A stretch of DNA of 64,000 bases, from NCBI RefSeq assembly GCF_964355755.1, contig NC_092670.1, positions 12,833,201 through 12,897,200 of the forward strand, read 5' to 3'. The stretch comes from Antedon mediterranea. Taxonomy: Eukaryota; Echinodermata; Crinoidea; Comatulida; Antedonidae. A model generated the notes under the pieces. It was not told the origin of the DNA. It was given only the letters and a program-made list of their open reading frames with translations, and did not search any database. Position 1 is the first letter of the stretch; every line of letters begins with the position of its first letter. This document shows, piece by piece, positions 12,294 to 56,952 of this stretch. The position numbers and the translations under genes were made by a program.

Positions 12294-13625
12294 CTATTTC
12301 CCACTATGTCTTTTTGTAGGCTTGAATGGATATCGATTCTTCGAAGATGGTTTGCATTTTTTATTCCACCATTCTCCATTAATATTATGGTCTTGTTTTG
12401 GAGGTTTAACGTCAAGTAAAGAGCATATTCGCGATGGCGAGAAGTTATCGTTTTCTTTAACCACACGACCCATTTTTTTCCAATCAAAGAATGCATTATA
12501 CATCTCCACATCATTTTCAATTAGATTAATATATTTAACAAAATCTTTCAAAGTATCAAAATCCGAAATATGAATAAATGAATTTGGTGGTGCTACTTTT
12601 TCATAATCCTTTCTTGAAGGTCCATATACAATAGGGACAACATTTAAATCGTACAAGAAGGGCCATTCCCAAAACTTTTCTGTAATATAATCATTACATT
12701 CACTGTTTTCAAGAGCAAGGAAAAATTTGTAATTTTTTAGAGCTTGACACACCTGGTTCCAACTGGTACAAGTTAGATTGCCACAATGTCCATATATATC
12801 AATTGGCAACTGTGTCTGAAGATATTTTACAAATTCGAATCGGTTATACGTCGAGCTTACGCAATTGTGCGCGATCCATGCCATTAGTTTTGTTTTACCG
12901 CGTAACCAGTTTTTGCCCGTTGCCACATTATTCGTTTGAGGATGTTCGAAAGGTATATATCGACCGTAAGGTACGTGTATGTCCGACTCAAAGCTGTATG
13001 ACATAGTCAGGTTAAAATGAAACCAACTCGGTGGAGCTTTGACCATTCCTAACAATCGAGTCGGGCTCTCCCACGTCTGCCAAATCCAAATTTGAGCCGG
13101 TGATCGATTCTTCTGAAATAACTTATATTCTTGGTTACGAGTATGAAAACTTGCGTGGAATATCACAATATCAGCGTTGGCCAATTTAGACACATTTTCA
13201 GAATATGTTATGTATACAGAACATTCTAAATCTGAGCAATTTACTTGTCCTTCGTTACCGCCATAAGCAAAGTGTTTACGCGCAATTTCTGGAATCCACC
13301 ATATCAAGACTGTTTTCATACAACGTGGTACGTTCGGCTGAGATAACTGCTTGACCAATGTGGTTTCAAATCCCACTGATTGTGTGATAGGGTTCGAATC
13401 AGACGAAATCTTTCGAGATAATCCTGTGTCAATAGATTTTCCATCCAGTGATACATTCGTTATACAACCGGCATTATTGTTCAAATTGAGTAGTACGTTT
13501 GTTTTGGAACTATATCTTATCGTTGGCATCGTATAGAACATTCTGTTATAGTACACAATAATTGATAGTAAACAAAGTGTAATTACAAAAAGGAAGCGTT
13601 TGCTGTACATCTTGTTGGTAAGCAT
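12294..13625 (-). CDS. Alpha-1,3-fucosyltransferase (GT10 family), intronless
   Basis: A single 443-codon frame beginning at the ATG at 13625 (A at -3). It is a type II Golgi enzyme: a short cytosolic tail (MLTNKMYSKR), one signal-anchor helix (about residues 11-26), a stem of about 60 residues, then the catalytic domain. It would transfer L-fucose from GDP-fucose to a glycan acceptor. Family motifs appear in order: ADIVIFHASF, QIWIWQTWESP (acceptor-side motif), NLTMSYSFESDIHVPYG, and the GDP-fucose binding block YKFFLALENSECNDYITEKFWEWP followed by VVPIVYGPSRKDYE and APPNSFIHI. An odd feature is WEWPFLYDLNVVPIV, where most vertebrate enzymes have a shorter N-x-L linker. Cysteines near residues 290-310 and SRICSLLD at the end match the conserved disulfide positions. 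Being intronless is common for FUT genes. Acceptor specificity cannot be read from the sequence. Confidence 0.93.
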   Translation of the reverse strand: MLTNKMYSKRFLFVITLCLLSIIVYYNRMFYTMPTIRYSSKTNVLLNLNNNAGCITNVSLDGKSIDTGLSRKISSDSNPITQSVGFETTLVKQLSQPNVPRCMKTVLIWWIPEIARKHFAYGGNEGQVNCSDLECSVYITYSENVSKLANADIVIFHASFHTRNQEYKLFQKNRSPAQIWIWQTWESPTRLLGMVKAPPSWFHFNLTMSYSFESDIHVPYGRYIPFEHPQTNNVATGKNWLRGKTKLMAWIAHNCVSSTYNRFEFVKYLQTQLPIDIYGHCGNLTCTSWNQVCQALKNYKFFLALENSECNDYITEKFWEWPFLYDLNVVPIVYGPSRKDYEKVAPPNSFIHISDFDTLKDFVKYINLIENDVEMYNAFFDWKKMGRVVKENDNFSPSRICSLLDVKPPKQDHNINGEWWNKKCKPSSKNRYPFKPTKRHSGK

Positions 13626-14687
13626 TGTTTACCGAAAAATTCAATCATATCATTTAACAGCATAACAAGTACGGTATAGGACATATATTTGCTGGCCGTG
13701 AGAAGCACAATACCGTGTAAGTAAATGCAAACAACGTGATCTGAAAATATATTTCTAGTCTTAGGCTGGTAGAGTACTGTTTCTGTACTTTCTGTTTGAC
13801 CATCTAGAAAAATCACAATAATATATTTTAATTATATTGACCAGGTAGATGCAGTAGTGGGGAACCAGGCCCGGGTGGAAAATATTGAATCTGTGATTCT
13901 ACTGTATCGTCATACCCAGCGTTAAAGTTTTGTGGGGAAAAAGCAATAGGCCTATTTAGTGGAAAAAAGGTGGAGACAAGAAACTGTGGATTCTATTTTC
14001 ACTAAAATTCCTTTTCAACAACACACAGTATTCTTTATGTAAATGGAGGTTATATTTAATTTAAGGGCCTACTAATTCTTGTGAACAAAGAGTATACCTT
14101 TAAATACTTACATTTTACCTTTGAAAAATGCAATATTTGTAAAGATCCAATTTGTGTATGATTAACATATACACCACGTTATTGGTCTTGTTCCAAAGCT
14201 TGTTTAATTCAAAAATTAGATTGCCTTATTTAAAGCAATATGGACTTGCTTGCTTCTTCTCTCTAATATTAACTGCACATGCACAACGCATACAATGGTG
14301 TTTGTTAAGGAGTGGATGGTTGTTGTACACTTATCTTTTAGTGGTGCGTAACAATAACGTCTGACTGAAAAAAGTCCGGTGTCCCATCAGACGTAGTCCC
14401 CCTATCTTTATGAACTTATTTTTATGAGGCAAACAGTGATTAGTGAGGGTTTAAGTTTTATTTATGAATTTTGTATTGTGTACACATATTAATTTATTGA
14501 CGAGTAGCACACTTTTGCCACCATCATTATCCTTCCACACCACTCTGTTTTCCATCCACATAACCGATAGAACGACGCGAGTCAGTCCTCCATTTTATCT
14601 ACGTATGATTTACCGAAAACCAAACTAAAGACTTCTTTATAAATCAAAGAAACAGAAACGCATTCGCGCTACGCCCTCTAGAAAAAT

Positions 14688-32336: not shown

Positions 32337-35300
32337 CTAAGGCACTCTATGACGATTTTTTCGCTGTATCATCAATCGTAATTCTTTATCTTCATTTAAG
32401 TCTTCCATTTTCAAAGGGTTCTGGTTTCCACATCCACATACTGGACACCTGCAAAGAGACAGGAAACTTAATAGTTATTTTATCAGTGAATTTATGACCT
32501 CTCTGTGACCCGATTGTAATGTAAACAATATGGCCAAGAATGATTGAATAACTGTAAACATAGCGTTTGGACGTCGCAATGAATTTTTGTTTAATAATTA
32601 CATTTGCCATAATCCCATTACAAATTACCTTTTTAACATACCAAAATGGCTAAAGGAGTGAGTAAGTGGTCTTGCTAGAGATAGAGTAACACATTGAACC
32701 AAGATGAATTTCTTAGATTCTTTTAAAAACACTTTTTCTAATCAATTCAGAGAAAAGTACCAAAAAGCCAATTTATTTAGATTGTGGTTTACCATCTCCA
32801 CATATAAATACGTCTATATTTTCTGGGAAGTGCATTCATATGGCAAACCTGGACGAAATGACCCACCATAGACATTCTCCCAGGCGAAAGCCTGTTTCAT
32901 AGACATATAGATCTAGTAGGCCTAGCATGTAAAAAAATCACTTTAATTTGGAATTTCAAAACTTTATACAGTTCAAATCAGATTGTATACAAATGCCTAT
33001 CAAGAAAAATTGTTTGTTCTTTCTGAATTATTATTACTTAGGTAATAAATAAGAAAGAAATACTGTACTACTATAAGGAATAAATACTACTACACTCCGA
33101 GTTCATAAGTTCTAATAAACGCAGCATTATATAGAGTACAGTACTTACATAACCTTTCTCCTAGAAGTCCTAATATAGTTGCTAATGGCTGCTTTCTCGT
33201 AGCTGTGTCCGCAGTGCTTGTTTTTCATTGGTTCCGTCATCTCAGACTGTGTTATTGGACATTTGAGACTGATCTCCATTTGTGTCATCACAAACTCCTG
33301 GCTATCTTCAAATTCAGTTTCTGATTGAGATGGTTGGTATACAGAACCTATAAAACCAATGAATACATAGTAATAAGTCAACTGTCCCAATACAGGACAC
33401 CATGTTACAGGCCAGAAAAACCAGTAATATTTCACAGAAAATGTTTGATGGGCAGTAACACTTAATTATATAGGCTCAATAAAATATGGGTTAAAGGACA
33501 AAATAAAAAATAAAGCCTTCTTTACGCTGATCCAGAGAGAATGAAAGAGGAAGAGAACGGAAAGAGAATGACGGGAATGAAGGAGAAAGAAAATAAATGG
33601 GGAAGGAAATGAGAAGAAGAGAATAAACAGAATGGAGGAAGAAATAGAAGAAGGAAGAGAATAGACAGAATGAAATAAGTTTAAAAACTCTCTTTATATA
33701 TTTGGTAAAATCAACTGGGGTAGGGCAAAACATTTTGAACAAGTCAACTTTTTTCAAATACAATTAAAATAGGAACACTGAATGTAAATCTTTATATAAG
33801 GTTTAATTCTCTGTATACTTCATTGCTTTATCATATTTTAGACATAGCGATTTTTATCAAAAATACCAGTATTATCTATAATATAACATTATTGAATGAC
33901 CTGTGCAGTGGGTTGTCCCCCAAAAAAAAAAGAAAACAAGGCCATATACATGGCTGCAGTCGCTTGCGCAAATTTGAGTTAGTGTTTACCAACCGGCATA
34001 GTGAGCTGTAGAGTAGCCTAACAATAGGAACACTTGTTTACCTGGGTTTTGTACCTGCCAAATTTGCTTCTGCATATCCTGGTAATGATCATGTTCCTCT
34101 AGAGGCGTCTTGTTGTCCTCTGCTTCAAGTTCCTTTACGGTACTCTCTAACATTTTAATAACACTTACTTCTGAAGAGCCAATATTAGAGTCATTGGCAA
34201 CCTTAATATATGAAAGATTGTCATCAAAATGTTATAAATAATTATCATAATTATAATCTTATTATTTAAAATGTCATATACAAATTAATAGCTATAATAT
34301 AGAGACAACACATTTCTTGGAAAGTAAAATTAGAATGTTTTAAGCCGGAGGAGATTGTAGCCTGCATTCATATTAGACTTAGCCCTGGCTAATCAATTTT
34401 GCAGGAAAGATATGTTGTCCTGAAAATGTATTGGTTCGAATGCCACTTTAATGGATTGTCCCATATTAGTTCACTTTGATCAACAATTGGATGGAAAAAA
34501 AATATTTACCTAAAAAAAATGTAATTTAAAGCAAAACATTGTCAACTGGCTGTCAGCCAATAGGTGTTGAATTTAACCATTTGTCTTTTCATAAGAGAAA
34601 ACATTGTTTTTTTATATTAAAACTACAAAATGGCTAATCTTCAGTTTTCATGTTTTTGGGGGACAATACATCTTTAATATTTAGGGTCAGTGTGATCAAG
34701 GCTTAAGCTATAATATGTTATATTTTACGACTTTCAACCCTGTTAATGGTGACGTTTGGTCACTGTAGGGTGATGATGAAATAAAATTAAAAAAAAGCTA
34801 ACCATTACTGGATCCATTGGTTGCTATACATTATTTACAATGGTAAACTACACACCTGTTGTCTTACTGTATCAACTGCTTGTTTAAACTGATCCAAACT
34901 TCTCTCTAGAGCTATCATCTCAAGCATTGTGTTTTCCATCTCTTTCAACTGTTCTGATTTGCCTGTTAAAATAATCAATGCAAAATTAAATAAATAGTTT
35001 TGGCAACAGAATCATTTCTCCCAGTACAGCAGTAAATTCAAATAATATTTTTAATCAATTCAAAGAAGCATAATTAATTGTTAAGGATCCCACAAGTATG
35101 TAAGCGCAATGCAAGTAGTTGACCAATCAGGACGCAATCATCATCCATTGCATCATGATTGGGCAAATTAATTTGTTGCTAATGTGTGACGCACCTCTAG
35201 TAAACATTGAACAACCGGTTGCGCGAGGTAGTTTGTGATGTGTTTAAAACGTGCAAATCTGTTAAAATGCATCACACTTGGGGGTTGGAACATTACACTA

Positions 35301-37980: not shown

Positions 37981-40900
37981 ATGGACGATTCGACAACAAT
38001 GCAGGTAAATAGTAAAAATATTTTTTTTCAACTTATAACTAGCTAGGGCCTAGCTGGCTAAGGCTACTACTACTACTAGGCCTACGCGAGTACTAGCTAG
38101 TGTATACTAGTAATTATTAGTAGGCCTAAATAAGTGTATAGCCTTGTAGTACTTCTACTGTATAGGCCAGTAAGTATTATTTATAATAATTAATATATTC
38201 ATTCAGCAAGCAAGTAAAGAAAAAAAAGAAATTTCAATCAATGCTTTTTTTGTTTCTACATTCTATTGAAAAATGTAGTTCAAAGAAAAAGTTATTATAA
38301 ATGATGATGTACCTACCATTCGACCAGTAATTTTGCATATAGACTTCACAACACATGAAGATAAAAACTTTAATTATACACTATTTTTTATATTTTATAA
38401 TTAAATACTATACATTAGGCCTATTCCTTTTAAACAGACTTCACCACCACCAGGTACTTTTAAGTCTAAAGTGGGACTTGTATTATCATGCGTTGGTTGT
38501 ATGGTTGGAACTGGAAACATATGGCGTTTTCCACGGATTGTTGCAAACAATAGTGGAGATGAAGGTAATATTTAATTTCTGCACAGTGCATCAATTCTAT
38601 ACCTAAATACCTAATATTAGCCTCATAAGGGTCCTCATCATTAAAAGATGCCACTGAATGTGAAGAGACAACTGTAAAAGTAAAGGACAATTTTTAGAAT
38701 TGTTTTTTAGTTTTTGGAACTTTTTTAGAATGACCTCAAAGTGGGGAACAGGAGGTTGATTTGCAGCAATTATTAACATACTTGTTTGTATATGTTTCAA
38801 ATATCAATTTCTTTTCTCCTTTCCTCAAGTGTGTGCAGTTTTATTTCTGTTTGAAAAAGTCTTCCTACTTGCACCTTTTCTAATTTAGTGATAGTGTTTT
38901 GTATGTGATGAGCTTCCATATAATGAAGCCATACTCAAGTCTTCAACTCTCTTTTGCGATTGTAACACTGTGTTTCCGCAGCCATAACACAAATTATCGG
39001 TGAATTTTTTTTTTAGCAATGAGATACTGTAATTAATACAAAATCAAGTTGAATGAAATTGGTTAAAGCTCAGGTACAGGCATGAATTTTAAATATAATA
39101 TTTGGTTAATTGTACATAAATCAAATATTTGTAATAGCCTCACTATTTACAAAATTTGTGTACAAAAGAATAGAGATTTTACTGTGTAATTTGAACTATC
39201 CCCGCACTGATAAAAAAATGCTTATTTTCAACAAACTCGTGTAACACAAATAAAATCTAAAAAAATTATGAAACATAGGGGAAACTATAGATCGATAATT
39301 ATTGGAATGTATGATCAATAGAAATTTTTTGCCCGCACCTGGCCTTTAAACCCTTACTGTTTTCAGAGAACCTTTAATCGTTAAATTATCGGCGAATTAT
39401 TTTTTAAAGCAATGAGATACTGTAGTCAATAAAAAATCAAGTTGAATGAAATTAGCTAAACCCTTTACTGTTTTCAGAGAACCTTTAATTGTTAATTATC
39501 AGTTTTTTAAATTAAATTTTGGCTCATTGAATTCTAATTTATGATAAAATAAATATTGCATTAATTGTATATTATACAAAGCTAATTATAATTTCATTCA
39601 ATTCTATCTACGTTTGCATATTTTATTAATTTATGCCCCTTTTGTATAAATAATAAAATGTTTACTTTCCAAATAAAGTTAATTTTATCTGAAAACTACT
39701 GTACCGGTACAGTATATTAAAATTTTGACATTTTCTAAAATGGATTCATAATTCTGTAAGCATTAATATATTATACAATTTACATAAATGCATTTAATTC
39801 TTGGGTGAGATTACTATACTACTGAACTATGACCTCCAGATCAATCAATCTTCCTCTGATGGCTAAAGCTCTGTCTACTGATGTACACTATCAAACTAGT
39901 TTGACAAAAAAAGTTTAATGTGCCCAAATATGGTGGGGATGCCTAAATATGTTAGTGATGACATCATCATGGGCACATCACACTTTTTGTGTCATATAAA
40001 GTTTGATAGGGTAGACAGCTTAAGGTTAGATTCGAGCCCAAGTGCGGTTAGTTATAAATTGACCATCTTTTTTGTGCAGTAAAGTAGGCTGTGGTTCAAG
40101 TCTCAATCCTAAAAAGTTTCCTGTTTTACTTTTTCCTAAGTACAGAAGAAAGTACAATTTTTGAATAGATCCTAATAAATTTTTGTATAACTGGAAAATT
40201 ATTACCTTTTTATTGAACCTTTGTGACATTTTGTTGACAAACTACTGTGTGGAATGATCTATACAGCGCTACACAGCGTCTCCAAGACCATTCTAAATAG
40301 TTTGTATTGTTCTTTTAATACTGTAAATTGTACTTAAAAGGTAGAGTAGGGCAAAACATACTGACCAATTATAAATGTATTAATTATTTACTGTAGTCAT
40401 AGTGCAGCCAGATTTGCTAATAATATCAAGCATTTTATGATACCATAAAACTTGAAACTTAACATCATAAAGAATTAATGTACATTAAAACAGTTAAAAA
40501 CAAGACAAAACAAATCTGGATTTGAAGGGTCTAGATGGGAATTAATAAAGAAGTGGAGCTGTAGCTTGGTGGTTAACACACTTGTCTTCTAATCCCAACG
40601 TCCAGGGTTTAATCATGACCTAGTGTCAGGGTTGTAACTCCTACTATTTCAACTCCACTCCCTAAGTCTCAAATAAGACTTAGTTTATAATATAAGCAAG
40701 ATAAATTATAAAATAAAATAGTTTATCCATCCTGTAATTGGCGAGTTGCTCGCTGTTGGATGCAAAAAAAAAAAATTATTTTAGAAATATAATATATTAT
40801 TTTTAAACAATTGGAATGGAGTTGTGTGGATTCTATGTACATTAAAATAGATTGAACCTGCAGCGCCACAAGACTGGGATTTTTAGACTTGAACTCCACT

Positions 40901-43900
40901 TCAATTTGTAATGTGAATAAAACTGTATTTTTAGTTTTTCAGTATTTAAAAAACAATCAAACATAATTTTTGCTTTACTACTAATAGTACTATACTAATT
41001 ATTTTATTTTTATTCATACGCATCCAACAGCAAGCACAAACTCGCCAATTAAAGGATGGATAAACTATTTATAATTTACCGTGCTTACAGTAAACTCATT
41101 TGAGGCTTAGGGAGTGGAGTTGAAAGAGCTGTGAGTTACAACCCTGGCACTTGGTCAGGATTGAACCCAGACACAGACTTTTTGGATTGGAAGACAAGCA
41201 CTACTAATAAATAAATGTATTTTGTTTTGTTTTCTCCTGTTTCATTTAATATTTGTAATACTGTTTTTGATTTTGTTGTTTAACATTTTAAATGTACATT
41301 ATTGATGAAGTCCTGAGACAAGCTTTTGCTTCTATAAGTGAGAGGGCCCCATGGATTTCATTGTTATCCTGTAAATTAAACAAAACAAAATTCACATTGT
41401 TTACTTCACCTGATCATTTCTGTTGACACAAATCGGCGAATTCATCTGAATAAATAATGAATTGATTAGTTGATTAAATATTGCACTCAATTTAAAGTAT
41501 AGGTAGTGCTGTAGGTCAATCTGTCCTAATAATTTGAAAATATCAGAAAGAGCTGGTATCGTTTGGGATTTTTAAGCCTTGGACATTTAGGCCCTTTGCT
41601 GTTGGTATTATAAAGCATGATGATATGCATTATAAAGCTTATACTCGAATGAATGCACGTGAAGACACATAAAAGAATAAATACAGAAAACATATTGTGA
41701 CCTGTGACCTATACAAACAGATTATCCTATTCATACCTAAAACCTCAGTTTCACTGTATTTATTTATTCTCTCAGCATAATAATATGACAATACAATAAC
41801 ATAGCAGTACAATGAATTGTTTAACTTCTCAAAAACTGAATTACAGTATATAAAGTTTGTATTTAATATTATAGACATTTTGAATGGAATGGTTAAGTTT
41901 GAGAATGTTGTCTAGTCCAGATTGTGATGATAACTTTGATACCTCTCTAAAGAAAAATAAATATCTATTTAAAATCATGTGACAGACAGAAATAAATAGA
42001 GAAAAATTGTTTGTGTTTAGCCCAAAAGTTTGTTTTTATAATTGGCGTATACCACTTACTTAAATCAATCCAATCAATGTATTTCTCAAAATAAAAATAA
42101 TCCAATGTAAAACTTAACATCACTGATATTGGTAATCAATTGTTGCCAATACAGTAAGTTACCAAAATATTACTCTGTGGTAGGGGCCTAATTTTTAAAG
42201 ACATAATTTTTTTTTAATTGCAATTTGTTGGAGTTCTTTGATTTGTTAATAATATTTTATAATTGATTGATTGATACATTTGATTTTTTCAGGCTGCCTT
42301 CAATTCATCCTTGTGTGGATTTTGTTCCTGTTCATATGGTCAATACCCATGGTGCTTATAGAGTATGGTGCGGGTCGTTTCACCAAAGTCTCCACAATAT
42401 TGTCATTTAAACGACTAGTAGGTCTTAAAAGCTCTTGGTGTGGTGCTTGGGTGGCCCTCGTTGACTTGGGAATTGCGTAAGTCTATTTGAATTTTTTCAT
42501 ACAAGACCATAAGAAACTCGCTAATTATACTAAGGTTTAATGTCCCCTGAATAAGAGTTGGCTGTTGTGTTAACATACATTGGTCCTTGTTTGTTTTGTT
42601 TCACAGGGAAGTGTTCCCTTTAAGGCCAACCACTGACGAGTGTTAACATTAAGCAGAAAATCGAGTATCTTGTCCCATGTACAGTCTCAATCTATCCTAA
42701 GCGGAAACCGTCCGTCTTCTAAATGTTGTGTGTAAACGAAAGGTCATAAGGAATAAAATGGATTCAGTCTATATTTGTATTTACTGTTACCACTCGTCTG
42801 TGTAAATTGACCTTAATAGTGTTGTCCCAAAAGACGGTTCTACTGTATTATATTGCATAAGTTAATTTAAAAATGTGATAATTTCGTGTTGTTTTTTCCA
42901 GATCATATTACTCAGTTGTTCTTGGATGGTGTTTCTACTACTTCTGTTATTACTTAGTCAATGATCTTCCAACATCATATGAGCAGAGTTATGCCACATT
43001 TAATGACTTTGCTGTGGTGAGTTTGATTTAATATGCATTTTATTATTCTGTCCTTTCTTTTTAACACAATACAATGTTTTTTAAAAGTTTGAATTAGAAA
43101 AAGCTTGAGAAAACATTTTTAAAACAGAAAATCATATGAAAGCTTGGTTCCTACTATGATGCAACGCAAGAACGCATACGTAATGCAAGAACGCATACGT
43201 AACGCAAGAACGCATACGTAACGCAAGAACGCATACGTAACGCAAGAACGCATATGTAACGCAAGAACGCATACGTAACGCAAGAACGCATACGTAACGC
43301 AAGAACGCATACGTAACGCAAGAACGCATACGTAACGCAAGAACGCATACGTAACGCAAGAACGCATACGTAACGCAAGAATGCATACATAATGCAAGAA
43401 CGCATACGTAATGCAATTTAGTTGACCGATGATAGGCGACCGTTTGAATAATCCAATAATCGCTTGTTATAGGTCAAATCAATTGCGTTCCACTTAATCT
43501 CTGTTTACACTATCAAACTAGTTTGAAGTGTGATGTGCCCAAATATGGTAGTGATATACCCAAATATAGTAGCACTACTATATTGGGGGTATATCACTAC
43601 TATATTTGGGCACATCACACTTTTTTGTCACATACAAAGTGGTCTTGGTTTGTTGTAACTGCTGTTAGATTATGTTTATTTTATTTTCTTTGTAATGTGT
43701 GTAGGATTCTGCATGGCCTGTTTTCTTCCACTTTTTGTCTGTGAGTTTAGCAGCGTTAGCCATAGCTTGGGGAGTCAAGTCCATTGAACTTGTCAACACT
43801 GCAACTGTGCCAATATTTCTCTGTTTGATTCTTTTCACCCTAATCTGGTCTCTTACTCTTGAGTATGCCGGTGAAGGGCTTAAGTTTCTCTTCAGTCCTG

Positions 43901-46900
43901 ATTGGGGTAAGTTTTTTAAAGTTTATTCGTTTGGTTTATTTTATATTAGTATTCAGTGTATATAAAGATCATGATACCAGTTGACTGTACAGGTGTAAAC
44001 TTTAATTTTAATAAAACTGTATTTGTAAATTTGAAATGTAATGTGGTTTCAATGTATTATGTTCATATAAACCAATAATGAACTTGACATCAAACAGAGT
44101 TTTGTCTAACTAACCAGCTTGACTGATAGATCAACTGGTTATCTAGGCAAAACTGTCTTTTACAGTAAATTGATGTGTCATACTGGAGGATAGCATATGG
44201 TACATTAATTTCTGCACTCATAATTTAACGTGTAACTTTTATGTTATGTTCGCGCATATAACCATACATTTTGTGTACCCTTTATCTCTGTTTTTATCTT
44301 TAATCACAAAGATCACACCTATATTATTCGTCAAAATTACTAATTTAAATCTTGTTTAAATTGGTTTATATTTTAATGAACAATACCATTTGTAAAGTTG
44401 TGTTAGTTAATATTATACACTATATCATTATTACACTAATAGTATCTTACCATACCAGCATTTATAACCCTAAGCATTGTTATTCTTTGTCTATTTATAG
44501 ATGTGTTTATATACTGTATGCCTCTGCACTACCACTAATGCATAATTGTTAATAATTTATTATAATTTAAGTGTTAATTTATTCATTATACTTTCTGCAT
44601 GTTTGTACATTGCATACTTATAATTAATATAAATTAGAAACTAAGACAATTGTATACTATGTTTGTGATACTTTTTCTATAGATGAATTAGCAGAAGCAC
44701 GATTATGGATCGATGCCGTAAGTCAGAACGCATTTGACACTGGTGCAGCCAGTGGTCTGTTCTTATCTTACGCGGCTTATATGACAGCCGAGCACAGTAT
44801 TGTTAAAATCGGTTTTCTCATTCCGATTGGCAATAACTTGGTCAGGTACTAGAAGAACAAATTGCTCTAAATTTAGTGAATTCATTATCTTTACATTCTT
44901 AGATAAACCTATTATTTTCCAGTTCTCTTTCAAGATAGAACACCTCTCTAAAACAATGGGAATGCCGATTGTGAAGCAAGAGGCGTATTCTGACTGGTTA
45001 CCCACAAACATCTCGATGTGACCTTAGCCCACTGCTCGCATACTAGAAAAGCAAAGTGCTAGATCGGCTGATTATCTGCTCAAAACAGCCCAGTCGAATA
45101 TGCCTAGTATGTCAGAAATGCACCATCCCATTATTACTATTAGAGGAGGGTTTTAATTGAGAGAGGACAGGAAATGATTTGTTTATTCAGAGAGGTGGCA
45201 CCTCATTCTCACTACTTTTATGCATTTTTATTGCTAGAATTTCAATTTATATTTATCAGGCTTTCAAACAATTGTAGGCATACATGCAGACCCAAACATC
45301 TTTCCACATTTAGATAAACTCATTATTTTCATGTTCTCTTTTAAGATATTTTAATACCCCCATAAACAATGGAAGATGCCAAATGTTGTGCAAAATAATG
45401 TAAAAAAGGACTGTTCCATTATTAGATGAGGGTTTTACTTGTTAATTGGTTTATTCAGGGAGGTGGCACCTCATTCTCACTGACATTTAAATTATTGTGA
45501 TATCATTTATCGAGCTTTTCAACATTTTTTAAGGCCTACAGGCAGACACAACGTATTTACCTAGTAAACAAACATCATTTTCATGTTCTGTTTCAGATTT
45601 AGTTAATAGTTTTGTGTTTTGTTTTCAAATTCATTTGATTATTATTGTTGTGTATCATGAATTTGAATTAAATAATGCATTTAATGCAACAGTTAAAAAA
45701 TACAAATTTTATTAGACAATCAAATAAAATGGCATAGCAGATATCTACAGCATATCTGGGAAGAAGTGAATTCTGTTACTGTTTATAGGAGACTTATATT
45801 CAGTCAAATTAGTACTGGAAGAAGTGAAGTATATGCCTTTAGCCATAAGTGAAGAAATAGATTCAGTCACATTAGTACTGGAAGACGTGAATTATATGCC
45901 TTCTTCCATTAGTGAAGAAATAGATTCAGTCATATTAGTACTGGAAGATGTGAATTATATTCCCACTGCGTATAGATGAAGAAGTAGATTCCATTAAGTA
46001 CTGGAAGAAGAAGTATAATATGTCTGCTGCCATAGAAGAAGAAATAAATACAATCAAATTAATACTGGAAGAAGTGAATTATATGTCTGCTGCTATAGGA
46101 GAAGAAGTAGATTCAACCTACCATCTGGACATATTGAGTTGGGTGCTGTATAGGCCGGAGAGTGATGATGTCATGATACAGGAATCTGACTAGCATGTGA
46201 TAGGCATGGGTTTGAGCCTGTCTCTGTACCATATTGATTGTATCCTTAGGCAAAATGCTTTTGTTCTCATTGCGTCATCAATTTGATGGCACATAAAGCT
46301 GTTGGTTTTACTGTATGTACAAAAAAAATAAAGAACTTTGTACACTATTCGAAAAGAAGATTATGGCATCCTCTCCTGGTGTGCTGATCTTGACTCCTTG
46401 CTGCCGTGGATCCGTACAGAGCTTATTTCGAATTGACTCAGTTACCAGTTAAGCCTGCAGACGATAAAAAATACTTTTATATTTCCAGCCAATATATTGA
46501 TATAGTTCACATATTAATTGGAATAATTGAAATATCATTACAGATAAGCTTACTGACGTAGAAACCTGGAAAGAGGCGATAGTCCAGAATGCGTATGATG
46601 TTGGAGCAGGCTTCGGTCTCTTTCACACATATGCTACATACATATCAGACGAAGTTGCCTTAGTCCCTTTAGGGGTTTTCACGCCCATAGGAAATAATCT
46701 AGTCAGGTACACTCCCAAAATATTTCTCAGTAACTTGGGTGCATGCGATGAAGTCATCTTATCCTCTTTAAATGTATACTGGTGGAAGTCTTCCATCCTT
46801 CATTTTTTTTCATCTAACTCCATCCTAAAGAGTTGAAGAGTTTTATTAATTAATATCATTGTGCATGTTATTCACTCACCTTAACCGCTTTAAATACAAT

Positions 46901-49900
46901 GTGATTATAATAGTGGAGGTTTTTCATCATAACTTTTGGTCTGTAATTGATGAATATGCCTGTTTCATTTTAAATTTTTATAGTACCCCAACCCCACAGT
47001 CTGAAGAGTAAAAATCAATCAGAATTAATTTATTTTACAGTTTATTTCTTCAACATAAGACATACTAAAGTGTAGTATAATGTATAGGGAATTGTATCAA
47101 AATGGCTTAATAAAGCAGCAACTGATAATATCCAGTATCATAGGCAAATTGTGTAATACTGTGTCATACTGTATCACATGTGACCCCAGTATTATGTTAA
47201 GGTTAGGTTTATGACCTATGATACATGTCACATGTGATACATATGACACAGTATTACACAATTTGCCTATGATAACATTATAGACATAAGAATCGGCTGA
47301 ATACTATGAGAATGCCATCGACTTTGACAAAATGTTGTGTTTGTTATACAGAAGACAGTGTCTATATTCAATTGAGCAAGAGTTTATAACAGTGCTGTGA
47401 CAACTCGGTCATCATTTTATTGTCTGTCTGATAGAGTTTTAAAGTCAGCTGAAGTTTATTGTCTCATAATAATTTTATTTTATTTGGTTTACCGGTTGCC
47501 GGTACTGTGTTGATTTTGCAATTTCTCTTATTAATTATATACTGTATAAATACAAGCTTTTCTTTTAACCTTTGACTTTAACATTAACAATATGCCAAAT
47601 ATCTATTCTGTCTCAAGCATGCCTGTTTTTATACTGTATCATTTTTTTCTATTGGGATTCTGTACCAGTACACCTATGCATAATAAATAATGCATTGACA
47701 CTTTGTCACTACAATTTGCATGCGTCGGAGGTAAATTTAAATACACATCTACCTGCACAAATTCAAGGCCTCAGAAACATGCATGTAAGAGAATCATGAG
47801 GAACGGATGCTAATGAGAAGGGGAAATATCATATGCATATTTTATTCTGTGTTATTAATTATGTTTTCTTTAGCCCCAGCTTTGCACAGATCAAAGTGCT
47901 TTACAAGAACCAATCATTTATACCCAAAAATTGTGTTTAAATGACTGTATTTTAATCATAGAATTACTGTTTAGATGCATCACCACCACACACACACCCA
48001 CCTTCCCTAGTTTCCTCTTTTTTAAAGTTTGCATCTGCCAAGAGTGCACCCTATTTTTAAACCTAAAATGGAATTATGAACTAATTATTGACATCTATTT
48101 TTGACAACAGACTATTATTGTTTTAAACTCCCCTGTTCTTTGGTCTGCTCTTGTCTGCACATGACTATAATATTGGAATATTTGTATTGTATGTTACTAG
48201 CACAGTATGACCTACTATTCATATGCTATATGTTTGGTTAACTATCCATAACTAACCCACTAAGCTTCAATATATCAACCATTATCTATTTGGGCCTATT
48301 TTTGTCTTGCTATTATTGGTGACTATAGGCCTAAGCATATCAGTTTTATTACCGGTCACGGTACCTTTCATATCAAAGTTCAATAATAATTGAATACTAC
48401 ACTGCAATCATATTCATGTTTACTCTGTAGCATTTCAGTAGAACCTAAAGGAACACCTTTGGGAGCCAGCCAAGTGTAACCCCCGAATAGAGGTTGACCA
48501 TAGTGTTAAAAGACATATTCAGCTTGTTTGTTTTACTGCAAAATGCCCCTTAATAGAGGTGTCCGAAAGGAGGGGTTCCACTATACATTTTGCATTTACC
48601 ATAACAAAATTCACTCACATTTGGTTATTGTTATAACCGTATTGCATAATATTTCTTATTCTATGCATGTTATTTTTTTTTAAATAACATTCAAATTACG
48701 CTTAGTAATATCTAATATTTAATAATTAGTGTATTTAATTCATATTTTAATCACGTAGGCTGAGAGTTCATGTGTGCCCTCCTATTAAAAATTTTTTGTT
48801 ATATATCCATATAATAGTTATATTTATATATATTTTTGTTGATATAAAAACAGTTGCTTTATCTATCGTTTTAGAATTTGTATTCGCTTTAATAAATTAA
48901 TCATTTATTTTATCCAAATATTAAAGGGACACCTTTGGGACTGAACAAATTGTCCCATTAGTAAGGGAGTCCAGCGTTAAAACATATTTCCCCTCATTCA
49001 TTTCACAGGAAAGTGTCTCCTTAATAAGGGTGTACCTTGAATAGGGGTTTGTTTTTGTGTTAAAACATAATATATTTCCCTTCATTTGCTTTAGGGGTGT
49101 CATGTCCTTCAAATAAGAGTTCCCCCTCCCACAAATAAGGGTGTCTCAATGTAAGGATTTTATTGTAGTCATAAACAATTCATTATGTATCACTACCAAT
49201 TTTTATTATTTTTTTACCCATTTCAGCTTATCCTGTGGGATGCTTACATTTGCTACAGTGTTCGCGACACGTTTACAAGCAAACGACACAATAGAAGAAA
49301 TTGTAGATATTCTAAAAGACAACGGACCAGCCAACACTGGCTTAACTTTTATATGGTAAATATTTAAAGACAATAGCAGTCTATTTTTTAACCCTCCAAT
49401 TGCCATTTTTGTTTAAATATCATGTTGTTTTTTCTGGCAATAAATAAATGAATGAAAACAATTATGGTATATTTCTTTTTATTTTATCAACCAGCCAGCC
49501 AATTTTTTCTGGAGAAATAATACTCAGAATTGTTCTGTTCTCTTTCCAAATTTTCTATTCTTTCTTCTTTCGTTGTTCGGGTCTGAAAAGTGTTCCTCAA
49601 ATCCAAAACCGGTCCGTTATGTGGAATTGGCGTTAAACTGACTTCCTCATGTAAAAGAAACTGCAGCAGCATTGATTGTTGATTATTTTACATTTTTGTT
49701 CATAGGTTTCCCTTGCTGTACGAGACAATCACCGGAGGGCGTGTTTTAGCTGTGTTGTTTTTCTTTGCTCTGTCGTTAGCTGGATTGAGCTCCATGATTG
49801 CTAATGTTGAGTTGTTCGTTCATAATGTCAAAGATCTTGGAGGTACTGTAAATTATTTATGAATAGCATCAAAAATGTTTTTGTATTTTATTTTTAATAT

Positions 49901-52459
49901 ATAATACCCTCTATTTTCTATTTGGGTTTCTATGAGTTATTTTGAGAAATCACTTGATATCATTTCATCTCTGTACAACAATTTTCGGTTTCAACATCTA
50001 TTTACACTAGTAATTAAAAGTAATAAAGTTGTTAAGTATAAAATGAATTAATGACGTGATACTAAAAGTAATGGAAAATGAGTTTTTATTGTTATCTCAT
50101 GATCAACCGTCGCCAACAAAAGATAAAATTGAAAATAAGCTGATAAAATGTTGTTTTGATATAGAAAACAAAATTAACAGTTTTCATTCATATTGATTGT
50201 GCCATGCAAACCTTAAAACAATATATTACAGAACTTTCTCTACTACATGTGAAATAGACAAAGTCATTGAAACCTTCTCATAAGTCCTTGCTCAGGTTCG
50301 AGTCTCTTCTTGTTGTTCATAGTTATTGCGGTTCTTTCTAAGCTCTGTCTGCACTATCAAACTTTATGCGACAAAAAAATGTGATGTGCCAATACAGCAT
50401 ATGAACATGATGATGTCATATTATTACCATATTTAGACATATACAGTAACTACCATATTTGGGCACTTTTTTTTGTCAAACTAGTTTGATAGTGTAGACA
50501 GAGCTTTAGGGAGGGTAAGCACTGGAGGTCCAGTGTTGTATATCTCTGCCTTGCAGCTTGTAAATACATCTCTCTGGAGAGTGAAAGGGTGTTATTCCTG
50601 TGTTCTCAGTACCCTGTCCTGGATAAAAACTTTTTGTCACCTGAGTGCTAAGGGGAGAAGAAAGTTGTCTGGGCTGTTTTTTTCTGTAGGATACAAGTCA
50701 CAATTCATTCCTACCTACCTTCACATTTACATAAAGTATAACATATTTTTTTTTTCAGTGAAACGATGGCAAGCCACGATTGGATGTACTATTATCATAT
50801 TTTTAATAGGTGTTGGTTCAGCTGTCAACTTGCAATTCTTACTTAACCAAGTAAGATACCACACAATTTTTCTACTAAATGGCTTTGCATAGAAATGATG
50901 AAAGTATTTAATTAATTTAACTCATTGAAATATATTACAAAATAAAAGGTCACTGCTGTAAACATAAACAGTTTTTCCAAATAATTGTATGTGTACATAA
51001 TTTGTAGTTACTGCAGTAACTGCAGTAGAATAATTTTAAACAGCGTTCATAGAACTTTTTACTCTCACCTGCTTCATACCACTGTAGAACATTTCTGTAA
51101 AATATTTCTGTTTATGAGAAGTTACAAATCTTTGTCATAATTATTAAATTATTATTTACACAATTTTCTCTTTTAAAGGATTTTGTTTGGGGATTCGCAT
51201 TAATTATATCTGGAACCTTGTTCCTGTACATGATTTATAGATATGGAGTTAGAAATTTCCGCCAAGATATGTTTAATAACTACAGCATATCTGACTGGCA
51301 ACTTCCTTTAGTTTGGGAATGGATTGTTAAGTAAGTCTGTGTTTGGATACTTATTCTAGATGTGTTTTTGATTTCTGATGACTGACGACCCAACTATATA
51401 ATGTTAGTTCATTGTGCGCATACAAGAATATTGGGACTTGCTTTCTCGCTCCCCCCACTTTAAGACAGGTTTAATGGTTTCTAGGTCCAGGCGATGACAG
51501 ACGACACATTCATTGATTGACCTGACCTAGTTAGATTGTTGGTTGTCACATATTTTCCCTATTGTTTCATGCAGTACCTTTTTCCCTTCAACAACAATGT
51601 CCTCAAATTGCAAACAAACAATACAACAACTTACTGTAAATTTCTTGAATTGAAAGTTTAATTATAGAATGTCCAAAAGCTGATCATGCATTAGAACAAT
51701 TGATTAGAACTTCTACCATAAAATAGAACTAAATAACATCACTTGAAACAAAATAAACAAATTTCATTGATGATAATTTTAAATATTTTATATTTATTCT
51801 CTACTTCTCTAAGATTCATTGCACCTATTGAGGCAGTTGGACTGTTGGTGTGGTGGGCAATTGATACCATTTCAAATTCTGACGGTGAGGAACCGTGGTA
51901 TGGGTTTTCACCTGAGAGTTTTATGGCGTGTATAGTTCAGGTGAGATTTTATACAATTTGGCCCTCTATAAATAAACCTATAGTAACAACAAATCTTCTA
52001 TACTACGAGTCGTCTGTCGAAAGAACTTTAAACATGTTTAATTTTCTCCCAGGGCATATGGTAGACACTGCATTGTGGATGCTGTGGGGGGTCATAGGCC
52101 TTATCTGTATTAATATTTGTTCATTTCCAGTTAAAATTATTTTTTTACATTGGTTACTTTACCGTACTGTAGCAATGCATTTTCTTTTTGTAGGTTAGTT
52201 TTAACCAATGAAACTATAAAATTATGTATAAATTATTATTTTTTTTTTTCATAAGTGGGTTGGTTTCATGGCAATATTGGTTACTATTAATCTGCTGTAT
52301 GTAAAGTATTGGCTAAATGTGAAACAAGAAAAGGAAGATAAAAACCCTCTGAGCTCTCACGACACACATGCTAACTCACACTTAAGTCTACACTCAAGTC
52401 TACACTCAAATTCCAATCCAAGTTATGGTACGTACGGAGACGAAGAAACCAAATACTGA
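37981..52459 (+). CDS. SLC6/NSS-type sodium-coupled transporter with alternative TM6 exons
   Basis: Twelve coding exons join in phase: 37981-38004, 38438-38564, 42293-42476, 42902-43016, 43705-43906, one of 44683-44845 or 46544-46706, 49227-49355, 49706-49842, 50759-50850, 51179-51330, 51814-51940, 52256-52459 (1656 nt, 551 residues). The start ATG has A at -3 and G at +4. The LeuT-type fold is clear. TM1 is GLVLSCVGCMVGTGNIWRFP, with glycine where monoamine carriers have aspartate, so an amino-acid-like or other substrate is more likely than an amine. TM5 to loop has EYAGEGLKFLFSPDW, a text more like bacterial NSS proteins than animal SLC6. TM8 has AGLSSMIANVE, with the Ser pair of the Na2 site. 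TM12 is WVGFMAILVTINLLYVKYW, followed by a His/Ser-rich tail ending DEETKY. The third intracellular text and overall length suggest a divergent, little-studied SLC6 branch. Substrate unknown. Confidence 0.92.
38040..38170. other. CTAG/GGCCTA-rich island in the first intron of the SLC6-like gene
   Basis: AGCTAGGGCCTAGCTGGC, ACTAGGCCTACGCG and AGTACTAGCTAGTG follow the first coding exon directly. The same composition is seen at 5930-6170, 27460-27570 and 35660-36150, next to other gene starts. Confidence 0.5.
39865..40023. mobile_element. Palindromic MITE, copy f
   Basis: AAAGCTCTGTCTACTG, then ACACTATCAAACTAGTTTGAC on the left; GTCATATAAAGTTTGATAGG and GTAGACAGCTTAAG on the right. It lies in the second intron of the SLC6-like gene. 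Confidence 0.8.
40555..40766 (+). repeat. tRNA-derived SINE, forward copy
   Basis: GGAGCTGTAGCTTGGTGGTT resembles a tRNA 5' half with a pol III A box (TAGCTTGGTGG, 40562-40572). A B-box-like GGGTTTAATCA follows at 40606-40616. The loop CTTGTCTTCTAATC suggests a tRNA-Arg(UCU)-type ancestor. The unrelated body continues to GTTGCTCGCTGTTGGATGC, which is shared with the inverted copy at 41019-41204. Confidence 0.7.
41019..41204 (-). repeat. tRNA-derived SINE, inverted copy
   Basis: In reverse orientation it repeats the body of 40555-40766, including CATCCAACAGCAAGC, CTCGCCAATTAAAGGATGG, GGGAGTGGAGTTGAAAG and a B-box region TTGAACCCAGAC. The two copies are about 250 bp apart and could pair in the pre-mRNA. 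Confidence 0.7.
43164..43410. repeat. 19-bp minisatellite, 13 copies
   Basis: The unit ACGCAAGAACGCATACGTA repeats 13 times over exactly 247 bp, with a few C-to-T type changes in the outermost units. It lies in the fourth intron of the SLC6-like gene, 148 nt after the donor at 43016. Every unit carries the palindrome TACGTA or a close variant. Open frames of 80-94 codons on the minus strand are an artefact of the repeat. Confidence 0.95.
43494..43637. mobile_element. Palindromic MITE, copy g
   Basis: TTAATCTCTGTTTACACTATC at the left, then CAAACTAGTTTGAAGTGTGAT, two ATATGGTAGTGATATACCC-like units, and TTGGGCACATCACACTTTTTT. The right inverted end is lost 68 nt before the next coding exon. 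Confidence 0.75.
44097..44157. repeat. Imperfect inverted repeat in the intron before exon 6a
   Basis: GAGTTTTGTCTAACTAACCAG is partnered by CTGGTTATCTAGGCAAAACTG across about 15 bp. Arms of about 20 nt with a few mismatches. Confidence 0.6.
44683..44845 (+). CDS. Alternative exon 6a of the SLC6-like transporter (TM6)
   Basis: Acceptor TTTTTCTATAG and donor GTCAG|GTACTA bound a 163-nt exon. With the G left by exon 5 it encodes 54 residues, including WIDAVSQNAFDTGAASGLF then LSYAAYM and PIGNNLV. It corresponds to helix 6 and the start of helix 7. It differs from exon 6b at the positions equal to LeuT F253 (Phe here) and F259 (Ser here). Confidence 0.9.
44885..45600. repeat. Degenerate tandem duplications downstream of exon 6a
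   Basis: Three related stretches start near 44895, 45308 and 45570 with TTAGATAAACYCATTATTTTC or similar text. GGTGGCACCTCATTCTCACT appears at about 45190 and 45465, each preceded by GAGGGTTTTA. The period is about 270-400 bp with many changes. Confidence 0.6.
45795..46115. repeat. Imperfect tandem repeat of about 60-70 bp between exons 6a and 6b
   Basis: About five units carry the words TTAGTACTGGAAGAAGTGAA, TATATGYCT and AGTGAAGAAATAGATTCAGTC, with increasing divergence. It lies about 430 bp before exon 6b. Part of the array is open in one frame, but no splice sites frame it. Confidence 0.7.
46544..46706 (+). CDS. Alternative exon 6b of the SLC6-like transporter (TM6)
   Basis: Acceptor ATCATTACAG and donor GTCAG|GTACAC bound a second 163-nt exon in the same phase as 6a. 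It encodes 54 residues, including WKEAIVQNAYDVGAGFGLF then HTYATYI and PIGNNLV. About 26 of 54 residues match 6a. The LeuT F253 and F259 positions are Tyr and Phe here. Its presence instead of 6a keeps the reading frame; its presence in addition to 6a breaks it. Confidence 0.9.
47137..47273. repeat. Long inverted repeat in the intron after exon 6b
   Basis: ATCATAGGCAAATTGTGTAA (from 47137) is mirrored by TTACACAATTTGCCTATGAT (to 47273). The arms continue inward through ACTGTGTCATACTGTATCAC and CACATGTGAC, giving about 47 nt each with a loop of about 40 nt. Confidence 0.9.
48430..48585. repeat. Dispersed repeat family D copy
   Basis: AGGAACACCTTTGGGAGCC, CCCCGAATAGAGGTTG, CCCCTTAATAGAGGTGTCC and GGAGGGGTTCCACTAT are shared with other family-D copies. 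Confidence 0.5.
48925..49155. repeat. Dispersed repeat family D copy
   Basis: GGGACACCTTTGGGACTG, GTCCCATTAGTAAGGGAG and CTCCTTAATAAGGGTGTACC recur within the copy, in the intron before exon 7 of the SLC6-like gene (ends about 70 nt from its acceptor). Confidence 0.5.
50338..50508. mobile_element. Palindromic MITE, copy h
   Basis: CTAAGCTCTGTCTGCACTATC at the left and GTTTGATAGTGTAGACAGAGC at the right; centre CATGATGATGTCATATTATT. About 170 bp, in the intron before exon 9 of the SLC6-like gene. Confidence 0.85.
51941..52198 (+). other. Open reading extension past exon 11 (possible alternative C-terminus)
   Basis: The last intron stays open in the frame of exon 11 for 85 further codons, to a stop at 52196-52198. 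The extension includes a strongly hydrophobic run (LWMLWGVIGLICINICSF) that could act as a membrane helix in place of TM12. A CTCCCAG acceptor-like site at 52052 would instead give a stop after three codons. Confidence 0.25.
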
Positions 52460-54581: not shown

Positions 54582-56952
54582 TTATGGAAATGACGTAGCA
54601 AACGTGATAAGTAACTCCGTTGTTGACGCGATCGTCATAAATATTCCAAATAGAAACGCAATGACAGCAATTGTAACGCAAGTGATAATTTGAATATTTG
54701 ACATGTACTGGAATTTAAGTTTTATATAAAATATGCAGGGACATATGAAGCTCATCCAGGGACTAACCAAACTACCAATGAACCCCATGAATTTGGCGAA
54801 ATGTGGAACTATCACTGCAAAAAATAAACAACTTAGGACGATGACAGCTCGGAAAATGGTAGCCCAAACTGGAGGTGGGTCTTTTGGGGTGGGACCATAA
54901 CAAGGGGGTAACGCGTTGACCCTTAGTAGGTCAAAGTTATCAATGATAAAGAAAAGAAAGAGAGGATAAGTGAAAATAGCTTTGAGAACCAGAAGCAAAC
55001 TAACCGCAATGAAAACCGGTCCTGCGGGCATATTATACACAATGAATTCTTTTACATCATTTCCGAACGCAATGTAAGGTGTGATTGAGTAAGCTAATAG
55101 AAGAATTGTACAGAATCCATACGAAAAGTTAATCATAGAATCGAACTTTGACCGATCTTTCATAGTTTCTTCAACACCAGCAATGGCAAAACTCGCTTCA
55201 AAGTTGAATAGGAGTACTCCACAGCTGACAGTGAACGCCCGGATGCCAACGTTCGGTGTGTATTCAAATTGCCAGGTGCTTGAATTAATCTCCATGGCTG
55301 AATAGACTATGACACTTATAAACATACTAGAAATGGCAAGAATGGCTATGAAACTGCTGATGGAGATCTTGATTAAAGTCCTTAAGAAGATACTCGGTAA
55401 AACCAACACTGTTGTTACGACAGTCCACCACAGTTTGGAAAGTCCGAGTTTTGGAAACGTTTCTACCAACATTGCTCCTGCTAGTTCGAGATACAGAGTT
55501 GCCACAGCCATACAGTATATGATTTGAATGATAACGATGAACCGTCTGCCGTGTTCTCCCCAGCATGCCTGTGCTATATCTGCATAACTTGATCTGGTCC
55601 TTACTTTCTTAATCTTTCCATCTGGTGTTTCAACATCATCGTACAAACATCGTGCAATCAACTGAATAGAAAATCAAAACTGTCATTATTCGTAAAGGCA
55701 CATTAACTTATTTAGCTAAGGTAACAATAGATACATACAGCAGAACGATAAGCCTTCTGACATATGCCTATTATGTTATGTTCAAGTTTTCTGTAAAGGT
55801 TCGCGATTATATCAGGTAATTTCTTTTCCTATTTTAAGACAACATGAAAAATAATTCAATATTGATGCAGACATAACCAACTTTAATTGAATTAGCCCTA
55901 TAGACAAATGACTAAATATAGCTCAAATATTAACCTTTTTAAAATAAATTGCGCATGCGCACATACAATTAGTAAGATTCGATGGATGATGACGTACAAG
56001 AACTGTAACTAACAATCGTTAAACACTTACCTTACTCGTGTATACTAAAACGATACAGGCTAAACAAAATATTACGATTGCTGCTACAAGTCCACCCTCC
56101 TTAAATGCGTAAGGAATACTCAATATACCGACACCAAATATGCAGTTACATATATTACAAGCAGCCTGAAAGGCGGAGCCTTCTCCAAAGTCTCCAAATC
56201 TTCCACTATTTACTGCAAAATATAAATGATCAAAACCTGTCTACACTATCAAACTAGTTTGTGATATATCCAAATATGATGATATGACATCATCGTGTCC
56301 ATTATTATGGGCACATCACATTATTTTGTCGCATTAAGTTTGATAGTGTAGACAAAACTTTACATATCGAATCAGTTTATTATCACTTGCAATCATTTTC
56401 AGGTCCAATTTATCATTAACAGAATGTAATCACCAGTTACAGCATTAGAGAGCTTAATAATTGCAGTCCTTCTTTTGTTCACACATTTCAAGTTTTCAAG
56501 TTCAAGTTTATTGTTTCACACAATACAATACAATAGAACAGTAACATAAATTAATAAAAACAATTGTGTGAGGAGGACGCATTAAGCCAAGGCTTTAAGT
56601 TTGGTCCTCCAGATAATTAATATATTTAATTATTTAATTTAAGTTAATTGACAAGTTAATATTTTATAGTATGTCAAAACGTTACGTCTCGCAGGAAGAA
56701 TTACGAAGGCTTAGAGAACATAACTCTACGTAGAGTTCTATGCAAGCCATTTTAAGCTTCCGTATAAAATGAATGAAACTTACTTCCATCAAAGTTGATA
56801 AAAAACGTTCCGTTGGTTTGTGAAAAATGTACAGTTGGATCTTGACTACTTGCAGGAGATTTTTGTTTCGTTGTATCACAAGTGATTCCGTTTGAGGTTT
56901 CGTCAAATGTTGAAACGAGTTTTGTCTTTTCGTTGTAGTCATCTAGCTCCAT
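54582..56952 (-). CDS. SLC32/VIAAT-like vesicular amino-acid transporter
   Basis: Three coding exons join in phase: 56952-56784, 56212-56031, 55661-54582 (1431 nt, 476 residues; vertebrate VIAAT has about 525). It belongs to the amino-acid/auxin permease (AAAP) fold with about ten helices. The cytosolic N-terminus (1-60) is polar. TM1 region: SAFQAACNICNCIFGVGILS then IPYAFKEGG, the usual unwound first helix. Next come TSKLIARCLYDD and SYADIAQACWG, matching the VIAAT loop. Later helices include LYLELAGAMLVETFP, FNFEASFAIAGVEETM and VPHFAKFMGFIGSL, the last being typical of SLC32. SLC32 loads GABA and glycine into synaptic vesicles using the proton gradient; SLC36 and SLC38 share the fold, so the substrate is inferred only. 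An acceptor (TTTACACACAG) just upstream of the start suggests a non-coding first exon. Most of the protein is in one 1080-nt exon. MITEs occupy intron 1 and the 5' flank. Confidence 0.9.
56232..56361. mobile_element. Palindromic MITE, copy i, next to a splice acceptor
   Basis: CTGTCTACACTATCAAACTAG at the left, ATGACATCATCGTGTCC in the centre, AAGTTTGATAGTGTAGACA at the right. It lies in intron 1 of the SLC32-like gene, with its edge about 19 nt from the acceptor at 56213, so it probably supplies the branch-point region. Confidence 0.85.
56485..56620. repeat. Interspersed-repeat tail with CAATACAATACAATAG run
   Basis: TTCAAGTTCAAGTTTATTG and CACACAATACAATACAATAG, then GGAGGACGC and GGTCCTCC as inverted words. 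It looks like the 3' part of a retroposed element in intron 1 of the SLC32-like gene. I see no second copy in the window. Confidence 0.35.

What the first reader, a model, noticed from the sequence alone, without database searches (positions are those of the whole stretch)
44683..46706. Two mutually exclusive exons swap the substrate-pocket helix of an SLC6-like transporter
Seen directly: exons 44683-44845 and 46544-46706 are both 163 nt, have the same entry and exit phase, both end GTCAG|GTAC, and encode 54-residue blocks of about 48% identity. Since 163 is not divisible by 3, using both or neither breaks the frame. The block covers TM6 and the start of TM7. From LeuT, TM6 residues F253, T254, S256 and F259 line the substrate site. 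By my alignment the first is Phe (6a) or Tyr (6b), the last Ser (6a) or Phe (6b), while both exons place Asp at T254. Inference: one gene makes two transporters with different substrate selectivity. I do not know of a described SLC6 gene with alternative TM6 exons; I could not search.
Basis: partly seen in the sequence, partly recalled or inferred. Interest (0 to 1): 0.88.

Follow-up and report, generated by a model that had tools for sequence, protein, structure and literature searches.

The report
Feather-star transporter with swappable pocket helix
A gene of the feather star Antedon carries two alternative versions of the exon for the helix that lines the transporter's substrate pocket, so one gene can probably make two transporters that share an ion-driven engine but hold their cargo differently.

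Summary
Observation confirmed. The window is Antedon mediterranea (crinoid). An NSS/SLC6 gene (37981-52459, +), with no close paralogue found in its genome, has two tandem exons, 6a (44683-44845) and 6b (46544-46706): both 163 nt, same phases, 26/54 residues identical. Either alone gives 551 aa; both or neither truncates (272 or 239 aa). Third codon positions are saturated, so the duplication is old. NCBI calls the 6a protein 'isoform X1'. In a second crinoid, Anneissia japonica, 'isoform X2' carries a 6b-type block (shared rare residues; tree support 100/98, though alternatives are not formally rejected). Ion-site residues are the same in both exons (LeuT positions 250, 254, 286, 290). Pocket residues differ: 253 Phe/Tyr, 258 Ala/Gly, 259 Ser/Phe, the last being the 'volumetric sensor'. 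Mutually exclusive splicing is very likely; altered substrate selectivity is plausible but untested, and no RNA reads could be reached. My paper searches listed no SLC6 precedent. New variant of a known kind.

The parts
37981..38004 (+). exon 1 (coding part), MDDSTTMQ
   Evidence: identical to the start of P0001
38438..38564 (+). exon 2, TM1
42293..42476 (+). exon 3, TM2 and start of TM3
42902..43016 (+). exon 4, rest of TM3
43705..43906 (+). exon 5, TM4-TM5; the next exon is entered in phase 1 (shared upstream exon)
44683..44845 (+). exon 6a, alternative exon: TM6 (helix 223-237, break 238-242 GAASG, helix 243-248), following loop, start of TM7
   Evidence: the annotated isoform X1 P0001 uses it
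46544..46706 (+). exon 6b, alternative exon: same segment, GAGFG at the break; 6b-type block in Anneissia japonica isoform X2 (P0006)
44846..46543 (.). intron between the two alternative exons, 1698 nt: too long for exclusion by donor-branch-point proximity
   Evidence: under 50 bp is the limit used in PMC5740500
49227..49355 (+). exon 7, TM7 (shared downstream exon); its first base completes the Ser272 codon (LeuT position 290)
49706..49842 (+). exon 8, TM8
50759..50850 (+). exon 9
51179..51330 (+). exon 10
51814..51940 (+). exon 11
52256..52459 (+). exon 12 with stop codon

Best explanation
One gene encodes two Na+-coupled NSS/SLC6 transporters of LeuT fold that differ only in exon 6, chosen by mutually exclusive splicing. 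Shown: two same-length, same-phase, anciently diverged homologous exons; only single use keeps the frame; a 6b-type block occurs in an annotated isoform of another crinoid. Inferred: exon 6a, with the stronger acceptor, is the default and the weak-acceptor exon 6b is switched on in certain cells; double or zero inclusion is removed by nonsense-mediated decay. The shared ion-site residues keep coupling the same. The swapped residues at LeuT positions 253, 258 and 259 reshape the side-chain pocket (a small Ser 'sensor' in 6a, a bulky aromatic in 6b), so the two isoforms most likely prefer different amino-acid-like substrates.
Against: No junction reads were available. What the second cluster members are was not seen. 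Exon 6b evolves fast: 31/54 identical to Anneissia against 270/353 outside the block. Over the whole block Anneissia is as close to 6a as to 6b (33 and 32 of 55); it also shares with 6a some less common residues (A223 in 6, I260 in 5 of 119 rows). Trees joining 6a with Anneissia, or 6a with 6b, are not rejected (p-AU 0.136 and 0.083), 6b is a flagged long branch, and the 6b-Anneissia pair falls beside prokaryote-type rows (95/75) and not beside 6a. Position 241 is naturally variable (14 residue types in 119 rows), so Ser/Phe alone need not change the substrate. The Anneissia model shows TM6 as a continuous helix (129-154; pLDDT 66-75 over residues 141-160), but that protein lacks TM1-2.
Confidence: 0.66

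Rival explanations
1. The exons are mutually exclusive, but the swap tunes transport kinetics, conformational cycling or surface expression through the loop after TM6 and the start of TM7, not substrate choice.
For: 12 of the 28 differences lie at 249-264, which the isoform A model gives as loop (249-256) and start of TM7. The basic residue at 259 (Lys or Arg in 104 of 119 rows) is Pro in 6b and Anneissia.
Against: Three positions of the pocket stretch also differ (235, 240, 241), one of them the known volumetric sensor.
Confidence: 0.25
2. Exon 6b (or its skipping or double inclusion) serves to lower productive expression: frame-breaking combinations feed nonsense-mediated decay and 6b protein is little or never made.
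For: 163 nt is not divisible by 3, so double or zero inclusion truncates. Weak 6b acceptor. Faster evolution of 6b.
Against: A poison exon need not keep an open 53-codon frame with the ion-site residues, nor be present in an annotated Anneissia protein.
Confidence: 0.06
3. Exon 6b is a decaying relic of an exon duplication and is no longer spliced in Antedon.
For: Long branch of 6b (0.56); weak acceptor.
Against: No stop or frameshift, intact splice dinucleotides, core residues retained despite saturated third positions, and an annotated Anneissia isoform with a 6b-type block.
Confidence: 0.04
4. Exon 6b belongs to a second, nested or neighbouring transporter gene or is an assembly error.
For: None found; the idea follows only from the duplicated exon.
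Against: Exons 2-12 other than exon 6 match once each in the assembly and no close second copy was among the 50 candidates scored; the third-position divergence excludes a recent assembly duplicate.
Confidence: 0.01

Closest known systems
Mutually exclusive exons in human transporter genes: SLC12A1 (PMC9741552), SLC39A14 and SLC25A3 (PMC5740500); passages only
   Same: One of two or more alternative exons per mRNA in a membrane transporter.
   Different: Other families. Here it is an NSS/SLC6 gene and the exchanged piece is the unwound pocket helix itself. That the SLC12A1 (NKCC2) exons change ion affinity is recalled, not read.
LeuT and MhsT, bacterial NSS
   Different: Bacterial, one form only; Thr at LeuT 254 (MhsT Thr; LeuT recalled) where this clade has Asp in 119 of 119 other rows.
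Animal YocR/YhdH/HI_0736-like sodium-dependent transporters (Acanthaster, Patiria, Diadema, Haliotis and others)
   Same: Same subfamily; the 120 listed rows have 37-72% identity apart from P0001 itself.
   Different: None of the 118 listed rows beside the two crinoid-labelled ones has L257 or P259 of 6b.
KHK, PKM, ACOX1 type of tandem exon events (PMC9741552 section 10, read)
   Same: Duplicated exon near or over a ligand site.
   [quoted passage not shown] here three pocket positions differ (235, 240, 241) while the ion-site residues are kept.

Membership tests
Mutually exclusive tandem duplicated exons | Adjacent homologous exons of like length and same phases | tested here: met
   163/163 nt, phase 1 in, 2 out, 26/54 identical
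Mutually exclusive tandem duplicated exons | Only single inclusion gives a full protein | tested here: met
   551 aa against 272 and 239 aa
Mutually exclusive tandem duplicated exons | Each exon joined to both shared neighbours in RNA; joined-exon reads absent or frame-breaking | not testable with these tools
   No RNA reads; the indirect sign is the isoform labels
NSS/SLC6 (PF00209) | SNF domain above the curated cut-off | tested here: met
   164.8 and 161.1 bits against 27
NSS/SLC6 (PF00209) | LeuT fold with broken TM6 | tested here: met
NSS/SLC6 (PF00209) | Na+-coupled substrate transport | not tested
   No assay; Asn is present at LeuT position 286

The most novel reading that the evidence does not exclude
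In crinoids an SLC6-type gene has become a natural pocket-swapping device: splicing exchanges the unwound TM6 segment so that one ion-coupling scaffold, with an Asp at LeuT position 254, drives two different substrate pockets. 6b carries a bulky aromatic sensor (Phe, Trp in Anneissia) as many prokaryote-type members do (Trp), and 6a a small one. As far as my searches reach, it would be the first NSS transporter with substrate specificity set by mutually exclusive exons.
Probability: 0.45. Interest if true: 0.75.

Novelty: new variant of a known kind. Interest (0 to 1): 0.6.

Why it matters
In a survey of human genes, tandem exon swaps tend to avoid ligand sites or keep ligand residues (PMC9741552 section 10). 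Here the pocket helix of a neurotransmitter-transporter-fold protein is exchanged while the ion sites stay fixed. If the two isoforms carry different substrates, they form a natural matched pair for asking which TM6 residues set specificity in SLC6, and a first handle on an animal branch whose records are mostly named 'uncharacterized' or 'putative', with some borrowed names such as GABA or dopamine transporter-like.

Tried and rejected
Further copies of exon 6 in the window: none. RNA pairing that could dictate exclusivity: only a 33-bp perfect inverted repeat inside intron 7 (47136-47274) and a weak low-complexity pair, 46306-46331 with 48670-48695; no docking/selector pattern could be tested without a second genome. 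Similarity between the introns flanking 6a and 6b: only words of 8-10 bases. Database search with the 6b region alone: 11 candidates, none at E <= 1; this says little, since P0006, which is within the length limits, was not found either. Search for short 6b fragments, hoping for transcript pieces: 2 candidates, none at E <= 0.001. Short intron and U2/U12 clash as the excluding mechanism: rejected, the intron is 1698 nt and all sites are GT-AG without a U12-like donor (U12 consensus recalled). A model of Anneissia X2 was not informative for TM6. Literature: eight of the ten paper searches looked for mutually exclusive or duplicated exons in SLC6 or transporters. None listed an SLC6 case, judged by titles and starts of abstracts (25 of 37 papers shown); of those hits only PMC9741552 and PMC5740500 were opened.

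Full report
What was checked. The window encodes, on the + strand from 37981 to 52459, a protein of 551 aa from 12 exons. It is 100% identical to an NCBI record, 'uncharacterized sodium-dependent transporter YhdH-like isoform X1 [Antedon mediterranea]' (P0001). The window lies in a 354-Mb, 18-contig assembly. Both isoforms match only Pfam SNF, PF00209, at E <= 0.001 (164.8 and 161.1 bits, cut-off 27). The best solved structure by sequence is MhsT (E 7e-36 for isoform A, 2e-37 for isoform B).

The duplicated exon. Exons 44683-44845 and 46544-46706 are both 163 nt, enter in phase 1, leave in phase 2 and end GTCAG|GTAC. The encoded blocks are 26/54 identical, the isoforms 523/551. Either exon alone gives 551 aa; both give 272 aa and neither gives 239 aa. 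The window has no third copy. In the whole assembly, 12 of 26 matches to P0001 lie in this gene (exons 2-5, 6a, 6b and 7-12) and the other 14 are distant, 26-46% identical; 50 candidates were scored and the tool calls its counts lower bounds. I therefore take the gene as having no close paralogue. Codon-position identity is 32, 38 and 16 of 53; dN is 0.45 and dS is undefined. So the duplication is old and both copies have been held as coding sequence.

A second species. Of the 120 best proteins listed (of 3210 with E <= 1e-5), two are labelled as crinoid: P0001 and P0006, 'isoform X2 [Anneissia japonica]' (unlabelled rows were not identified). The Anneissia block is as close to 6a (33/55) as to 6b (32/55) overall. 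Of ten residues it shares with 6a against 6b, six are common (50-104 of 119 other rows) and four less so (5-19 rows). With 6b it shares V237, L257 and P259, found in 1, 0 and 0 of 119 other rows. A tree of 40 hand-chosen rows on 55 columns joins 6b with Anneissia at 100/98. Forced alternatives (6a with Anneissia, 6a with 6b) are worse by 22.2 and 25.3 log units but not rejected by the AU test (p 0.136 and 0.083). The pair falls beside prokaryote-type rows (95/75), then sponge rows, and 6b is a long branch, so its deeper origin is open. I read this as 6b orthology, hence a duplication older than the Antedon-Anneissia split. Whether Anneissia also keeps 6a was not seen. The P0001 and P0006 clusters each hold two sequences, which fits X1/X2 pairs differing by exon 6 but does not prove it.

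Rates. 6b evolves faster than the rest of the protein: 31/54 against 270/353 identical to Anneissia. 6a is more conserved than the rest against three labelled sea urchins (37/54, or 69%, against 57-60% outside), but not against the brittle star Amphiura (32/54, 59%, against 67%) or the three sea-star rows counted (30-31/54 against 59-62%).

How exclusivity may work. The intron between the exons is 1698 nt and all sites are GT-AG, so steric or U2/U12 exclusion does not apply. In 629 human clusters those two account for 9% and 0.79%, while 60% have exons not divisible by 3 (PMC5740500, passages). The 6b acceptor has the weakest pyrimidine tract of 12 (0.5, longest run 2). The 6a and 6b donors score 3.6 and 3.9, lower than all of the 12 but exon 8 (3.0), on a recalled human-like matrix. 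I infer a default 6a and an activated 6b, with frame-broken products removed by nonsense-mediated decay. No RNA-structure signal was found.

Known or new. Mutually exclusive tandem exons are a known kind, enriched among human and fly genes for transmembrane ion transport (PMC9741552, passages). In that survey such regions tend to avoid ligand sites, and 80.6% of ligand residues inside them are kept (section 10). A swap of the pocket helix in an NSS/SLC6 gene did not appear in the listings of eight searches. I therefore call it a new variant of a known kind. NCBI's isoform labels mean that isoforms of both crinoid genes are catalogued, though I found no description of them.

Noticed in passing
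45798-46115: Tandem array of five 63-nt units (21 codons) between exons 6a and 6b, with GGAAGAAGTGAA-like stretches; partly open reading frames broken by stops. Possibly an intronic splicing enhancer or a relic of another coding repeat.
   Followed up: partly
43163-43416: Array of 13.4 copies of a 19-nt unit (AACGCAAGAACGCATACGT), 96% matches, in the intron before exon 5.
   Followed up: no
9788, 31959, 39881, 50347, 56239, 57039 and others: Dispersed short element with inverted ends GTCTACACTATCAAACT: 17 end matches with up to 3 mismatches in the window, six times as facing pairs 54-136 nt apart (MITE-like).
   Followed up: partly
47136-47274: Perfect 33-bp inverted repeat with a 73-nt loop in intron 7; no other copy in the window at up to 6 mismatches.
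   Followed up: partly
54585-55673: Minus-strand frame of an Aa_trans (PF01490) amino-acid transporter just downstream.
   Followed up: partly
12297-13628: Minus-strand uninterrupted frame of a GT10 fucosyltransferase (444 codons from stop to stop; PF00852).
   Followed up: partly
33148-33465: Minus-strand frame with zf-Nse (PF11789), perhaps an NSE2-like SUMO ligase (the name is recalled).
   Followed up: partly
whole subfamily (P0001-P0120): Asp at the LeuT T254 position together with Ser at 290: the acidic residue sits elsewhere than in LeuT (E290). Could be a separate solution to chloride independence; Asp in 119 of 119 other rows and Ser in 119 of 119.
   Followed up: partly
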